A stretch of DNA of 37,380 nt from an uncultured Bacteroidales bacterium (GTDB lineage Bacteria; Bacteroidota; Bacteroidia; Bacteroidales; UBA932), in the NCBI GenBank assembly GCA_947367315.1, contig CANBDX010000021.1:1-37380 (forward strand). Reading direction: 5' to 3'. This document shows positions 7,110 to 37,380 of the stretch, one piece after another (the first letter of the stretch is position 1; each line of letters begins with the position of its first letter). The notes under the pieces were generated by a model. The model searched no databases, was not told the DNA's origin, and saw only the letters and a program-made list of their open reading frames with translations. A program made the position numbers and the translations under genes.

Positions 7110-7955
7110 ATGAAAACTATCTTACGAATTACGTATGTCTGCTTAGCCGCACTGATTTTGTCTTCCTGCAGTCCCCGTATCACTGTCATGAGTTTTAATG
7201 TCAGGCAGAGCAAGGCGAAAGAGGTTGATCCGAATAATTCATGGACCAACAGGAAAGATGCCTGCTTGACGATGCTGAAGGAAACCATGCCGGACGTCGT
7301 AGGTTTTCAGGAGGTCCAGATGGGCGATCAGTGGCCGTTTTTCCGAGATAGCCTCAAAGCGTTGTATGATGGATATGCGCTCGGCAGAAGAGATGGAAAG
7401 GTAAAGGGAGAGACATCCGGATTTCTCTATAACCGCGATAAACTTACATTGCTTGAACATGGTACATTCTGGCTCTCGGAAACTCCCGAGCAGCCTTCTT
7501 TGTCGTTTGATGAGAAGTATTACCGTTCCGCAACATGGGGAATATTAAAAGTTGCCAGATCCAACAAGTGCTTTCTATACATCAACACTCACATGGGCTT
7601 GACCTATAAGTCTCAGGTTGAGGGCTTTAAAGTTATTCTCGCGAAACTATCAGAAATTAATCCGAATGGTTATCCGGTAGTCATCACAGGAGACTTCAAT
7701 GTTCCGATGGATCATGATGCATTTGCGACTGCCCGTCAGACTATGAATAATGCAATCGAGGTAGCTGAAAAGAAGCTCAATGCGGACGCACCTACCTATA
7801 ACGCATGGGGAAATGAACACAAGTATGCGGTAGTCGATCACATCTGGCTTTCCAAGGATGTGAAGTGTCTCCTTTATGTTACAGACAACAAAGAATATGA
7901 TGGTCACAAGTTCATATCTGATCATTTCCCTATAATGACTGAATTAAAATTCTAA
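7110..7955 (+). CDS. Endonuclease/exonuclease/phosphatase (EEP) family hydrolase, lipoprotein (EEP-1)
   Basis: Lipobox-like LSSC; MSFNVR, GFQEV, INTH, TGDFN, VDHIW, SDHFP motifs; ATG at 7110 (track start 7095 is TTG). Confidence 0.88.
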   Translation: MKTILRITYVCLAALILSSCSPRITVMSFNVRQSKAKEVDPNNSWTNRKDACLTMLKETMPDVVGFQEVQMGDQWPFFRDSLKALYDGYALGRRDGKVKGETSGFLYNRDKLTLLEHGTFWLSETPEQPSLSFDEKYYRSATWGILKVARSNKCFLYINTHMGLTYKSQVEGFKVILAKLSEINPNGYPVVITGDFNVPMDHDAFATARQTMNNAIEVAEKKLNADAPTYNAWGNEHKYAVVDHIWLSKDVKCLLYVTDNKEYDGHKFISDHFPIMTELKF

Positions 7956-7979
7956 ACACAATTACAAACATTAATAACT

Positions 7980-8840
7980 ATGAGAAGAAAAATTCTTTAT
8001 CTATTTTCTCTCTGTCTTTTCGTCCTTGCTTCTTGTGAAAAAGAGCCTGAAGTAAAGAACAACAGACATAATCTCGGCCCGAATGAGTTGAAGATTATGA
8101 GTTTCAACATGAGAGAGCCCGCTGATGGCGGAAAGGATGAATGGGCTGTGCGAGCGGGTGCAGTCATGGCAATGTTCGACGATCAGCAGGCTTCTTTGAT
8201 GGGTTTTCAGGAGGCCGGCCATGAGTCAATTAATCGCTATCTGAAGGCGATCATTCCAAGTCACGGCTATGTTTTTGTTGATGAACTGGAGAACAAGAAC
8301 TCAATGGCGTACAGGCCGGAGTTGTTGAAGGTTGTAAAGAAAGGTCTGATCTGGCTTACTGACACTCCAAGTGTACCTTCTTTGAGCACAAGCGGTTATG
8401 TGAGAACAGCACGATGGGTCATTTTTGAGATTGTTGCAACCGGAACACAGTTTTTCTACATCAACACTCACTTTGACTTGTCTTCGACTGACCAGAAAGC
8501 GAACCTCAGGTACATTAACAAGCTGATCGCCCAGCAGAACAAGGATAATCTACCTATGGTCATGACAGGTGACTTCAATGTAGAGTCTTACACATCTGTT
8601 TTTGATTCTATACAGGAAACAATGGTATCAACCCGTGATGTCGCCCCTGTCACAGATAGCCATATGACATATAATGCATGGGGTAACACTTCGAAGCAAA
8701 GAATCATTGACCACATCTTCATGAGCAAGGAACTCGAATGCTCTGAGTACAAGACTGTTACTCAGTCATATGAGAACCACTACTATGTTTCTGATCACTA
8801 TCCAGTATATTCTATTATAAACTTTGATACCCATGAATAA
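7980..8840 (+). CDS. EEP family hydrolase, lipoprotein (EEP-2)
   Basis: Lipobox LASC; MSFNMRE, GFQEA, INTHFD, TGDFNVE, IDHIF, SDHYP motifs. Confidence 0.88.
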   Translation: MRRKILYLFSLCLFVLASCEKEPEVKNNRHNLGPNELKIMSFNMREPADGGKDEWAVRAGAVMAMFDDQQASLMGFQEAGHESINRYLKAIIPSHGYVFVDELENKNSMAYRPELLKVVKKGLIWLTDTPSVPSLSTSGYVRTARWVIFEIVATGTQFFYINTHFDLSSTDQKANLRYINKLIAQQNKDNLPMVMTGDFNVESYTSVFDSIQETMVSTRDVAPVTDSHMTYNAWGNTSKQRIIDHIFMSKELECSEYKTVTQSYENHYYVSDHYPVYSIINFDTHE

Positions 8841-34744: not shown

Positions 34745-36172
34745 ATGAATAGAATTCTTCTTATCTGCCTGCTACTTTTAGGCTCATCTGTAATGCAGGC
34801 CAAGGTGGAACTACCACCAATTTTTGCAGATAATATGGTTCTCCAGCAGCAGACTGATGCCGCTTTGTGGGGCAAGGCGAAACCTCAGTCAAAGGTGGTC
34901 ATTACAACAACATGGTCAAAAGTAAAGACTGTCGTAATTGCGGATTCTGACGGAAAATGGTTCGCTCGTGTATCAACACCAGTCGCAGGCGGTCCATACA
35001 AGATCACATTCAGTGATGGTGAAAAAGTGACCCTGAATAATGTACTCATTGGTGAGGTGTGGATCTGCTCCGGTCAGTCAAACATGGAGATGCCGATGAA
35101 AGGATACCCTGGTCAACCGATTGCAGGAGGTACAGAACTGATTCTCAAAGCTAATCCGTCGACTCTTATCCGTTTGTGCAATCTCGAGAGGGTAAAGTCC
35201 TTTGATTCTCAGGATATTTGCCCTGCGACTTGGTGTGAACATACTCCAAAGGGTGTATCGGAGACAAGTGCAACTGCATATTTCTTTGCAAAGATGCTAT
35301 ATGATGTTCTTCAAATTCCGATCGGGGTTATAAATGCATCCTGGGGCGGAACGCCGATTGAGGCTTGGATGAGTCCGGAGATTCTTAAAAAAGAATTTGC
35401 TACTGAGTTTAACCTCAGTCACTATGATACTAGAGTATGGCCGGAAAGTCATCCTTACAAGGCTCCTGGGGTGCTTTATAATGGCATGTTGCATTCTTTG
35501 GCCAAGTATACTGCCAAAGGCTTTATCTGGTATCAGGGGTGTACTAACAGGGGACGATATGAGCAGTATAAGAGATTGCAGCCTGCGTTCGTGCAGATGC
35601 TCCGTGATGATTGGGGTAATCAGGAAATGCCGTTCTATTTCACACAGATTGCGCCATACCAGAACCGCGATCCGAAGGGACGTAAATCCGGATACATGAT
35701 GTGGGCTCAGGCTCAGACTCTTGATATGATTCCACATAGCGGTATGGCGACAACTCATGATTGCGGAGAACTTGCATGCATCCATCCAGCTGACAAAAAG
35801 ACAGTAGGAAGCCGCCTTGCATATCTGGCTCTTGCCCATGACTATGGCTACGACCTTATTGATGCAGATCCACCTATTTATGAGTCGTTTACAGTTGTAG
35901 AAGGTGGGGCTTTGGTAAAATTCAAGGTAGGTCCTATGGGCCTCAGTCCAATAAATATGGAACTTGAGGGGTTTGAACTTGCAGGAGAGGACGGAGTGTT
36001 TTACCCGGCATTGGGACGCGTTCATGGTGATAAAAAGCATCTGCTTGTAAGATGTCCTGAGGTCCCGAATCCGGTTTCGGTTCGTTATGGCATGAGAAAC
36101 TGGTCTGTGGCAACCGTATTCAACTGCAATGGCATTCCTGTTTCGCCGTTCCGTTCGGATAATTGGGAGTAG
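34745..36172 (+). CDS. Sialate O-acetylesterase-like (SASA) secreted esterase
   Basis: FADNMVLQQQTDAALWG, VWICSGQSNMEMP, NASWGGTPIEAWM, WYQGCTNRG, CIHPADKKTVG. Confidence 0.9.
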   Translation: MNRILLICLLLLGSSVMQAKVELPPIFADNMVLQQQTDAALWGKAKPQSKVVITTTWSKVKTVVIADSDGKWFARVSTPVAGGPYKITFSDGEKVTLNNVLIGEVWICSGQSNMEMPMKGYPGQPIAGGTELILKANPSTLIRLCNLERVKSFDSQDICPATWCEHTPKGVSETSATAYFFAKMLYDVLQIPIGVINASWGGTPIEAWMSPEILKKEFATEFNLSHYDTRVWPESHPYKAPGVLYNGMLHSLAKYTAKGFIWYQGCTNRGRYEQYKRLQPAFVQMLRDDWGNQEMPFYFTQIAPYQNRDPKGRKSGYMMWAQAQTLDMIPHSGMATTHDCGELACIHPADKKTVGSRLAYLALAHDYGYDLIDADPPIYESFTVVEGGALVKFKVGPMGLSPINMELEGFELAGEDGVFYPALGRVHGDKKHLLVRCPEVPNPVSVRYGMRNWSVATVFNCNGIPVSPFRSDNWE

Positions 36173-36205
36173 CACATAAACAATAACGAAATAAATAACA
36201 ATACA

Positions 36206-37380
36206 ATGAAAGAAACACTAATTCACCAGGCGTACCAGATCGCCAAGGAACGTTACGCCGAACTCGGAATCGACACAGAGAAGGTACTCGAGCAGCTTCA
36301 GAACTTCCACCTGAGCATGCATTGCTGGCAGGCGGACGACGTAAAGGGCTTTGAGGTACAGGCAGGAGACCTCTCAGGCGGTATCCAGTCGACAGGTAAC
36401 TATCCTGGTGCAGCTCGCAACATTGATGAACTTCGTGCAGATGTACTTAAGGCAAAGAGCCTCATTCCCGGTAACCACAGACTCAATCTTCATGAGATCT
36501 ATGGAGACTTTCAGGGTAAGGTCGTTGACCGTGACGAAGTGACTGTAGAACACTTCCAGAGTTGGATCGACTGGGCTGCTGAGAATAACACAAAACTCGA
36601 CTTCAACTCCACATCATTCTCGCACCCGAAGAGCGGCAACCTTTCGCTTTCAAACCCAGACGAGAGCATCCGCAAGTTCTGGGTGGAGCACACAAAGCGC
36701 TGCCGTGACATCGCTGACGCTATGGGTAAGGCACAGAATGACCCCTGCATCATGAACGTATGGGTACATGACGGATGCAAGGATGTGTCTGTAAACCACT
36801 ATCTTTATCGCGAGACTTTGAAGAAGTCACTCGACGAGATCTTCGCAGAGAAGAAGGACTGGATGAAGGACTGCATCGAGGGCAAGGTGTTCGGTATCGG
36901 TCTCGAGAGCTTCACAGTAGGCTCACACGATTTCTATACAGCTTATGCTGCAAAGAACAATATGATGCTTACCATCGACACAGGTCACTACCACCCGACA
37001 GAGGTGCCTGGCGATAAGGTTTCAGCAGTTCTTCAGTTCGTTCCAGAGCTCATGCTCCACGTGAGCCGTCCTATCCGTTGGGACTCTGACCATGTGACTA
37101 TCATGGACGATATGACTCAGGACCTCTTCAGCGAGATCGTCCGCGCAGGTGCGCTTGACCGCGTTCACTATGGTCTTGACTTCTTCGACGGTTCCATCAA
37201 CCGTATCGGCGCATACGTAATCGGTTCGCGTTCTGCGCAGAAGTGCATGACAAAGGCCCTTCTTGAGCCAAGGGAACTCATCAGCAAACTCGAGCTCGAA
37301 GGGGATACATTCCAGGTACTCCAGCTCATCGAGGAAGGCAAGACAATGCCTTGGAATGCTGTATACGACGAGTTCTGCGT
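36206..37380 (+). CDS. rhaA: L-rhamnose isomerase, truncated at the window edge
   Basis: Open frame from ATG 36206 (not in the ORF track): MKETLIHQAYQIAKERYAELGIDTEKVLEQL...LSMHCWQADDVKGFE...NLHEIYGDF...HPKSGNLSLSNPDESIRKFWVEH...LTIDTGHYHPTE...HVSRPIRWDSDHV. Confidence 0.95.
   Translation, partial: MKETLIHQAYQIAKERYAELGIDTEKVLEQLQNFHLSMHCWQADDVKGFEVQAGDLSGGIQSTGNYPGAARNIDELRADVLKAKSLIPGNHRLNLHEIYGDFQGKVVDRDEVTVEHFQSWIDWAAENNTKLDFNSTSFSHPKSGNLSLSNPDESIRKFWVEHTKRCRDIADAMGKAQNDPCIMNVWVHDGCKDVSVNHYLYRETLKKSLDEIFAEKKDWMKDCIEGKVFGIGLESFTVGSHDFYTAYAAKNNMMLTIDTGHYHPTEVPGDKVSAVLQFVPELMLHVSRPIRWDSDHVTIMDDMTQDLFSEIVRAGALDRVHYGLDFFDGSINRIGAYVIGSRSAQKCMTKALLEPRELISKLELEGDTFQVLQLIEEGKTMPWNAVYDEFC

What the first reader, a model, noticed from the sequence alone, without database searches (positions are those of the whole stretch)
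7110..37380. PUL for a rhamnose/uronate glycan built around EEP-fold and PHP phosphoesterase-like enzymes
Alongside SusC/SusD, a lyase-GH88 fusion, GH78 and rhaB/rhaA, the locus encodes three EEP-domain proteins and a secreted PHP-domain protein. EEP and PHP families are mostly metal-dependent phosphoesterases. A secreted set of them beside rhamnosidase, lyase/GH88 and O-esterases suggests a phosphodiester-decorated, acylated polysaccharide containing Rha and uronic acid, such as a bacterial capsule or exopolysaccharide. Alternatively, the EEP domains may have an unrecognised carbohydrate activity. No sulfatase was seen, which argues against ulvan or sulfated GAGs.
Basis: partly seen in the sequence, partly recalled or inferred. 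Interest (0 to 1): 0.85.

Follow-up and report, generated by a model that had tools for sequence, protein, structure and literature searches.

The report
Glycan-degrading gene cluster with surface phosphoesterases
A gut (probably rumen) bacterium carries a sugar-polymer-digesting gene cluster in which cell-surface enzymes of a phosphate-cutting family are a fixed, conserved part, which suggests that it feeds on a phosphate-decorated polysaccharide that nobody has yet identified.

Summary
Window 7110-37380 is a SusC/SusD polysaccharide utilization locus (PUL) with three EEP domains, a PL33-GH88 fusion, a double GH2, GH78, esterases, a PHP protein and rhaB/rhaA, and no sulfatase. The same locus recurs in same-genus genomes, mostly rumen MAGs. 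All 13 loci with a close PL33-GH88 fusion and enough flank carry EEPs; none of 12 stand-alone PL33 loci elsewhere in the order does. The three EEPs form three orthologous clades with intact catalytic residues, closest among characterised proteins to BT3783, a "mannosyl-6-phosphatase". Two of the three look surface-exposed, whereas the lyase and GH2 enzymes look periplasmic. PHP, GH78 and rhamnose genes are accessory. Other PUL versions carry unrelated phosphatases (histidine-phosphatase, NPP, HAD). In two genomes a calcineurin-type phosphoesterase is fused directly to PL33-GH88. This use of unrelated folds is the best evidence that the glycan carries phosphoester groups. I read it as a PUL for an acylated, phosphorylated, glucuronate-containing glycan, with EEPs removing or cutting phosphoesters at the surface. 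The exact substrate and the EEP activities are untested. It is a new variant of a known kind.

The parts
3444..4217 (-). SGNH/GDSL esterase, overlaps the 3' end of the regulator gene
   Evidence: Pfam PF13472 58.5 bits; same strand as the regulator, 4-base overlap
4214..6970 (-). HTCS-like regulator (Reg_prop propeller, Y_Y_Y, AraC-type HTH; no kinase or receiver domain found); ATG at 6949
   Evidence: sequence; orthologs divergent from the PUL in other genomes
7110..7955 (+). EEP1, lipoprotein without acidic residues after the Cys (predicted periplasmic); keeps the GRxxG..GE loop of BT3783
   Evidence: PF03372 54 bits; PDB 3mpr/4c1r; catalytic residues; lipobox; loop
7980..8840 (+). EEP2, lipoprotein with acidic export-type signal (CEKEPE; predicted surface), lacks the GRxxG loop
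   Evidence: PF03372 40 bits
8833..12114 (+). SusC-like TonB-dependent transporter
   Evidence: Pfam; 69-72% identical orthologs
12130..13914 (+). SusD-like lipoprotein
   Evidence: Pfam
13935..16274 (+). fn3 + beta-solenoid surface lipoprotein, predicted glycan-binding
   Evidence: fn3; 53% identical over 299-856 to the solenoid of the next protein; lipobox CNNELE
16287..19649 (+). Surface lipoprotein: fimbrillin-like N-terminus, GLUG-type beta-solenoid, C-terminal EEP
   Evidence: Pfam; AlphaFold model; fold matches; over 100 full-length relatives
18876..19619 (+). EEP domain of the above protein (EEPc)
   Evidence: Foldseek best 3g6s, 3mpr, 4c1r
19804..22836 (+). PL33 uronate lyase fused to GH88 unsaturated glucuronyl hydrolase; signal peptide, no lipobox (predicted periplasmic)
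22840..27456 (+). Double GH2: beta-mannosidase-like unit fused to beta-galactosidase-like unit, predicted periplasmic
27467..28114 (+). DUF2490 protein
28118..30307 (+). GH78-type alpha-L-rhamnosidase, accessory
   Evidence: Pfam; no close ortholog at the PUL in other genomes
30291..31367 (+). SGNH esterase with GxDLY N-terminal domain
31397..32062 (+). SGNH esterase, lipoprotein CANEDSQE (predicted surface); conserved in orthologous loci
32064..33251 (+). Secreted PHP-fold phosphoesterase-like protein, accessory to this genome
   Evidence: PDB 3e38 2e-55; no homolog in 11 other PUL genomes
33296..34729 (+). RhaB, rhamnulokinase-like FGGY kinase
34745..36172 (+). SASA-type acetylesterase
   Evidence: conserved
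36206..37380 (+). RhaA, L-rhamnose isomerase (cut by contig end)

Best explanation
This is a PUL for an acylated, glucuronate-containing heteroglycan that carries phosphoester groups. Inferred order of events: (1) SusD and two solenoid lipoproteins bind the glycan at the cell surface. (2) The surface EEPs (EEP2 and the solenoid-linked EEPc), with a surface SGNH esterase, cut phosphodiester or phosphomonoester groups and acyl groups. (3) SusC imports the trimmed pieces. (4) In the periplasm PL33 cleaves at glucuronate, GH88 removes the unsaturated uronate, the double GH2 removes beta-linked mannose and galactose-type residues, SASA removes acetyl groups, and EEP1 acts as a phosphatase on oligosaccharides. 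(5) Here GH78, RhaB and RhaA take the rhamnose. PHP is an extra phosphoesterase of this genome. Shown here: gene content, conservation, catalytic residues, orthology, sequence-based location signals, and use of other phosphoesterase folds in versions of the locus. Inferred: every enzyme activity, the phosphate on the glycan, and the steps.
For: EEPs are core: the fused PL33-GH88 was found in 18 of 400 same-genus genomes; of the 15 close ones (the window plus 57-62% identity) all 13 with enough flank lie in this EEP PUL, against 0 of 12 stand-alone PL33 loci of other families. EEP1, EEP2 and EEPc are three well-supported orthologous clades inside one PUL clade, with catalytic positions intact in 50 of 51 sampled EEP domains. 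Nearest solved relatives are BVU_0621, 3mpr and BT3783, deposited as mannosyl-6-phosphatase. Unrelated phosphoesterases appear in PUL versions: PHP, histidine phosphatase and type I phosphodiesterase, secreted HAD. In G731 and G776 a calcineurin-type phosphoesterase is fused to PL33-GH88 and to the neighbouring lipoprotein. EEP is also fused to GH27, GH97-SGNH and SASA in the genus. Surface-type signals are on EEP2 and EEPc, none on PL33-GH88, GH2 or SASA.
Against: No activity or substrate is known for any protein here; EEP-fold enzymes also include nucleases. EEP1 and EEP2 are each missing from some loci. The glycan is inferred only from enzyme families, and GH2, GH78 and esterases have many substrates. 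A third distant fusion, in G560, has neither EEP nor another recognised phosphoesterase nearby. G731 and G776 carry near-identical loci, so the calcineurin case is one event. Location signals are read from sequence by simple rules. The genomes are draft MAGs.
Confidence: 0.62

Rival explanations
1. The EEPs and other phosphoesterases serve phosphate scavenging (from nucleic acids, phospholipids or phytate), as in the phosphate-utilisation SusCD systems of Flavobacterium, and share the locus with CAZymes without acting on the same molecule.
For: SusCD loci with phosphatases but without CAZymes are known and phosphate-responsive (PMC8115612); 576 SusCD loci without CAZymes hold phosphodiesterases, and nucleic acids were proposed as target (PMC6499787). 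EEP folds include nucleases.
Against: This locus is rich in CAZymes and has a glycan-type propeller/HTH regulator. EEP or calcineurin domains are fused to glycan enzymes. EEP linkage is specific to one PL33-GH88 lineage. The rumen is usually phosphate-rich (own knowledge).
Confidence: 0.15
2. The EEP domains have left phosphoester chemistry and perform another carbohydrate reaction, for example removal of acyl esters or cleavage of a glycosidic bond.
For: EEPs are fused to acetylesterases and glycosidases across the genus; EEP2 and EEPc have lost the GRxxG..GE loop shared by BT3783 and other relatives.
Against: Metal and catalytic positions are unchanged, and unrelated true phosphoesterase folds take part in the same PUL lineage.
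Confidence: 0.13
3. The target is a plant glycan with Rha-GlcA motifs (arabinogalactan, gum or pectin side chains) without essential phosphate; the phosphoesterases handle minor or contaminating groups.
For: PL33-GH88, GH2, GH78, acetylesterases and, in G004, GH28 with CE15 and RhaBADT fit plant heteroglycans in a rumen setting.
Against: It does not explain why two or three EEPs are kept as core genes and why other phosphoesterases replace or add to them; no arabinose or galactan enzymes were seen as conserved in the locus.
Confidence: 0.1

Closest known systems
Yeast alpha-mannan PUL of Bacteroides thetaiotaomicron with BT3783 (PDB 4c1r, deposited as mannosyl-6-phosphatase)
   Same: A SusCD-type glycan system (own knowledge) with an EEP of the same subfamily; EEP1 aligns at about 100 bits with all catalytic residues and the GRxxG..GE loop.
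   Different: Here there are two or three EEP paralogs as core genes, two at the surface by signal, one fused to a solenoid; EEP2 and EEPc lack the loop; CAZymes are PL33-GH88 and GH2, not alpha-mannanases.
Phosphate-utilisation systems (PUS, PusCD) of plant-associated Flavobacterium (PMC8115612)
   Same: SusCD pairs with phosphodiesterases/phosphomonoesterases; the same study lists an orphan outer-membrane EEP protein with a pectin-lyase-type fold (Fjoh_0074).
   Different: PUS loci are co-localised with phosphoesterases rather than CAZymes and respond to phosphate depletion; this locus holds a full CAZyme set and a propeller/HTH regulator.
PL33 lyases (BT4410 and relatives; PMC11848413)
   Same: About 510 bits to solved PL33 enzymes; conserved GlcA-site and catalytic residues and the PL33_1 Trp.
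   Different: Fused to GH88 and set in an EEP PUL; characterised PL33s act on hyaluronan, heparosan, chondroitin or gellan.
SusCD loci with phosphodiesterases but no CAZymes (PMC6499787)
   Same: SusCD plus phosphoesterase genes.
   Different: Those loci were defined by lacking CAZymes and were counted with PF00149/PF01663, not EEP.

Membership tests
Polysaccharide utilization locus (Sus-type) | Adjacent SusC and SusD genes | tested here: met
Polysaccharide utilization locus (Sus-type) | Several CAZymes and a linked sensor-regulator | tested here: met
   PL33, GH88, GH2 x2, GH78, esterases, propeller/HTH regulator
Polysaccharide utilization locus (Sus-type) | Induction by a glycan | not testable with these tools
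   needs culture and RNA-seq
EEP (PF03372) superfamily | Model score over cut-off and catalytic N/E/H/D/N/D/D/H present | tested here: met
BT3783-type mannosyl-6-phosphatase | Closest characterised relative by sequence and fold | tested here: met
   the BT3783 function itself is taken from the PDB title
BT3783-type mannosyl-6-phosphatase | Shared GRxxG..GE active-site loop | tested here: inconclusive
   kept in the EEP1 clade, lost in the EEP2 and EEPc clades
BT3783-type mannosyl-6-phosphatase | Mannose-6-phosphate hydrolysis | not testable with these tools
   assay needed
PL33 (subfamily 1) | Sequence similarity and conserved catalytic Asn/Tyr/His plus subfamily-1 Trp | tested here: met
   by alignment to solved PL33s: N234, W235, W238, Y287 and HNHN 442-445
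PL33 (subfamily 1) | Activity on hyaluronan or heparosan | not testable with these tools
   assay needed
Phosphate-utilisation system (PUS) | SusCD with phosphoesterases | tested here: met
Phosphate-utilisation system (PUS) | Absence of CAZymes at the locus | tested here: not met
Phosphate-utilisation system (PUS) | Regulation by phosphate depletion | not tested
   no PHO-box search or expression data
PHP / CehA-McbA metallohydrolase | Family score over curated cut-off | tested here: not met
   56.3 bits against cut-off 80; the PHP fold is supported by 3e38, so it resembles PHP but is not filed as CehA/McbA

The most novel reading that the evidence does not exclude
The surface EEPs are the depolymerising step: the target polymer has phosphodiester bonds in its backbone (teichoic-acid-like or phosphoglycan capsule), and a solenoid-bound EEP cuts these bonds at the cell surface before import, replacing the usual surface glycosidase or lyase. 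To my knowledge the locus would then be the first PUL whose endo-acting surface enzyme is a phosphodiesterase.
Probability: 0.2. Interest if true: 0.82.

Novelty: new variant of a known kind. Interest (0 to 1): 0.62.

Why it matters
Phosphate-substituted glycans are common on microbes, but dedicated gut or rumen systems that digest them are hardly described, and EEP domains were not counted in the PUL census I could read (PMC6499787 used CAZymes, sulfatases and peptidases). A conserved locus in which phosphoesterases of several unrelated folds sit with, or are fused to, the same lyase points to an overlooked class of phosphoglycan-degrading PULs. It also gives concrete enzymes for finding the substrate. 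The genus has further EEP-CAZyme fusions that make the idea testable on many proteins.

Tried and rejected
(1) PHP as a core part: rejected, no homolog in 11 other PUL genomes. (2) Rhamnose as the defining sugar: weakened; the window-type GH78 and rhaBA are missing from several loci, although other GH78s lie downstream in G004, G043 and G048. (3) Glycerol-1-phosphate as the substituent: the PUL tail in G004 holds a glycerol-1-phosphate-dehydrogenase-like gene, HAD phosphatase, G3P-dehydrogenase-like gene and GlpT-like antiporter, as would suit glycerol-phosphate groups such as those on streptococcal rhamnans. But that dehydrogenase is found in 13 of 15 genomes, mostly away from the PUL, and AraL/AraM-type genes beside aldolase operons are another explanation (own knowledge). 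Kept as a lead only. (4) EEP next to organophosphate antiporters in four genomes: suggestive, but genome-wide proximity was not clearly above what I estimated by hand for chance. (5) GLUG solenoid as an enzyme: no significant fold match, so read as binding. (6) PF01663 and EEP co-location across 41 genomes: compared by eye only, no clear statistic. (7) Literature: no open paper found on EEPs in CAZyme PULs; the BT3783 paper is not held.
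Full report
WHAT IS THERE. The window is one whole contig of a 2.39 Mb draft genome. From 7110 to its end it reads as one operon-like run on the + strand, divergent from a regulator: EEP1, EEP2, SusC, SusD, an fn3/beta-solenoid lipoprotein, a solenoid lipoprotein with a C-terminal EEP (EEPc), a PL33-GH88 fusion, a double GH2, DUF2490, GH78, two SGNH esterases, a PHP-fold protein, RhaB, a SASA acetylesterase and RhaA. 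EEP2 begins at 7980 and the PHP gene most likely at ATG 32064.

THE LYASE AND GH2. The lyase half matches solved PL33 enzymes at about 510 bits over its whole length. The residues that bind GlcA and do catalysis in BT4410 (N238, W239, Y291, H444) and the subfamily-1 Trp (W242) have counterparts here (N234, W235, Y287, HNHN 442-445, W238; mapped by eye). PL33 cleaves at the uronate of hyaluronan, heparosan, chondroitin or gellan (PMC11848413), so a 1,4-linked glucuronate is expected; which polymer cannot be read from sequence. The GH2 protein is a beta-mannosidase-like unit (with the usual catalytic Glu residues in the alignment) joined to a beta-galactosidase-like unit.

CONSERVATION. A scan of species genomes with the solenoid-EEP family found 15 loci, all in Bacteroidales or Bacteroidia MAGs; where the title tells the source it is mostly rumen (sheep, water buffalo), plus reticulum and deer cecum. 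Annotating flanks shows the same order (regulator, EEPs, SusC, SusD, solenoid protein, solenoid-EEP, PL33-GH88, then GH2-GH2, SASA and SGNH) in locus after locus. Those loci were found through EEP, so I repeated the search from the lyase side: the fused protein occurs in 18 of 400 same-genus genomes and, among 395 genomes spread over the order, only in the window's own. Of the 15 close fusions (the window plus 57-62% identity), the 13 with enough flanking DNA all lie in an EEP PUL; one contig carries only the lyase and one stops within the solenoid gene. As a control, 12 stand-alone PL33 loci in other families show no EEP within their flanks. The solenoid-EEP gene is in all 13 loci, EEP2 in 9 and EEP1 in 7 (counted; some contigs start too late to tell).

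THE EEPs. Eight catalytic or metal-binding positions are unchanged in 50 of 51 EEP domains sampled from this genus; a ninth is H, F or Y. In a maximum-likelihood tree EEP1, EEP2 and EEPc form three clades (UFBoot/SH-aLRT 100/98, 96/90, 100/100) inside one PUL-specific clade (99/97). They therefore most likely arose by duplication within this PUL lineage and were then kept apart. The closest solved proteins are BVU_0621, 3mpr and BT3783, deposited as mannosyl-6-phosphatase. EEP1 keeps the GRxxG..GE loop that BT3783 shares with other relatives; EEP2 and EEPc have lost it. I infer different, probably larger, substrates for EEP2 and EEPc.

LOCATION. By simple rules on the N-termini, EEP2 and the solenoid-EEP carry a lipobox, in most orthologs followed by acidic residues (CQKEEP, CTQKEEP and similar), like SusD, the fn3-solenoid protein and one SGNH esterase, which suggests the cell surface. 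EEP1 has a lipobox without acidic residues, which suggests the periplasm. PL33-GH88, GH2-GH2 and SASA have no lipobox across the orthologs (one PL33 excepted, whose match is probably false), which suggests the periplasm. So the EEPs and one SGNH esterase are the only conserved enzymes that look surface-exposed. This is the ground for the bolder reading that EEP does the surface cutting. The predicted model of the solenoid-EEP protein has mean pLDDT 80 and shows a beta-rich N-terminus, a beta-solenoid and a well-formed EEP. The N-terminal half resembles fimbrillin-type adhesins and IgA-protease solenoids only weakly, so it is read as a binding part.

PHOSPHOESTERASES OF OTHER FOLDS. PHP is found only in the window's genome among the PUL genomes tested. 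But G004 has a histidine-phosphatase gene in the same operon (RHGSRS motif; PF00328 just over cut-off). G049 has a type I phosphodiesterase (PF01663, 92.6 bits) between SASA and GH2. G493 has a secreted HAD phosphatase directly after GH2-GH2. Most telling, in G731 and G776 a diverged PL33-GH88 lacks EEP but has a calcineurin-type phosphoesterase module fused to its own N-terminus, and the same module ends the lipoprotein encoded just upstream, where the solenoid-EEP sits in the other loci. The two loci are near-identical, so this counts as one event. Across the genus EEP is also fused to GH27, GH97-SGNH and SASA, and a second EEP-rich SusCD locus in G004 holds a PF01663 phosphodiesterase. Replacement and addition by unrelated folds is what one expects if the need is phosphoester cleavage on the glycan, and is hard to explain if EEPs do something else.

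WHAT IS NOT SETTLED. No activity was measured. The phosphate group is unknown. A glycerol-phosphate module lies at the tail of the G004 locus and EEP sits next to glycerol/hexose-phosphate-type antiporters in four genomes, but the dehydrogenase is mostly elsewhere in the genomes and I treat this as a lead. Rhamnose genes and GH78 vary between loci.

COMPARISON. The closest known kinds are the alpha-mannan PUL of B. thetaiotaomicron with its EEP phosphatase, and the phosphate-utilisation SusCD systems of Flavobacterium (PMC8115612), in whose proteome an orphan outer-membrane EEP with a pectin-lyase-type fold is listed. An earlier PUL census noted phosphodiesterases in SusCD loci without CAZymes and proposed nucleic acids as target (PMC6499787). 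The present locus combines both worlds, and I found no open paper on EEPs as core parts of CAZyme PULs. I therefore call it a new variant of a known kind.

Noticed in passing
L151:5166-9689 and L152:10598-15121 (G731, G776): A calcineurin-type phosphoesterase fused to PL33 and GH88 in one 1507-aa protein, next to a 1100-aa lipoprotein ending in the same module.
   Followed up: partly
L067:4121-6424, L071:14465-17839, L072:8211-10451, L073:7992-10214, L069:7214-9001 and 13969-17439: EEP domains fused to GH27, to GH97-SGNH, to SASA (twice), to another EEP, and to GH97, in same-genus genomes.
   Followed up: partly
L066/L067 (G004:C65) and L068 (G011:C10): A second EEP-rich SusCD locus with three EEPs and EEP-GH27; in G004 also a GH63/trehalase-like protein, PF01663 phosphodiesterase, GH39 and GH2.
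   Followed up: partly
L065:4109-8674, L073:4509-7995, L116:8782-13207: Module of glycerol-1-phosphate-dehydrogenase-like gene and GlpT-like antiporter, often with a HAD phosphatase; beside rha genes and an EEP fusion in G011 and beside a secreted calcineurin-type protein in G023.
   Followed up: partly
L076:9826-12140 and L148:9735-11958: EEP gene directly adjacent to an organophosphate:phosphate-antiporter-like gene (GlpT/UhpT/PgtP type) in G000 and G493.
   Followed up: partly
window 4214-6970: PUL regulator with propeller, Y_Y_Y and AraC-type HTH but no kinase or receiver domain found; orthologs of similar length (912-947 aa) in related loci.
   Followed up: no
L029:14132-15274: A YhcG/DUF1016 PDDEXK nuclease gene sits inside the G004 version of the PUL.
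   Followed up: no
L074:142-5288 (G000:C86): A paralog of the PHP protein (51-53% identical) lies two genes from an 893-aa calcineurin-type phosphoesterase protein.
   Followed up: no
L069:8998-9993: A degenerate EEP that has lost most catalytic residues lies beside a tandem EEP-EEP protein.
   Followed up: no
window 2008-3407: Low-molecular-weight phosphotyrosine-phosphatase gene overlapping a FecCD-type transporter gene, upstream of the PUL.
   Followed up: no
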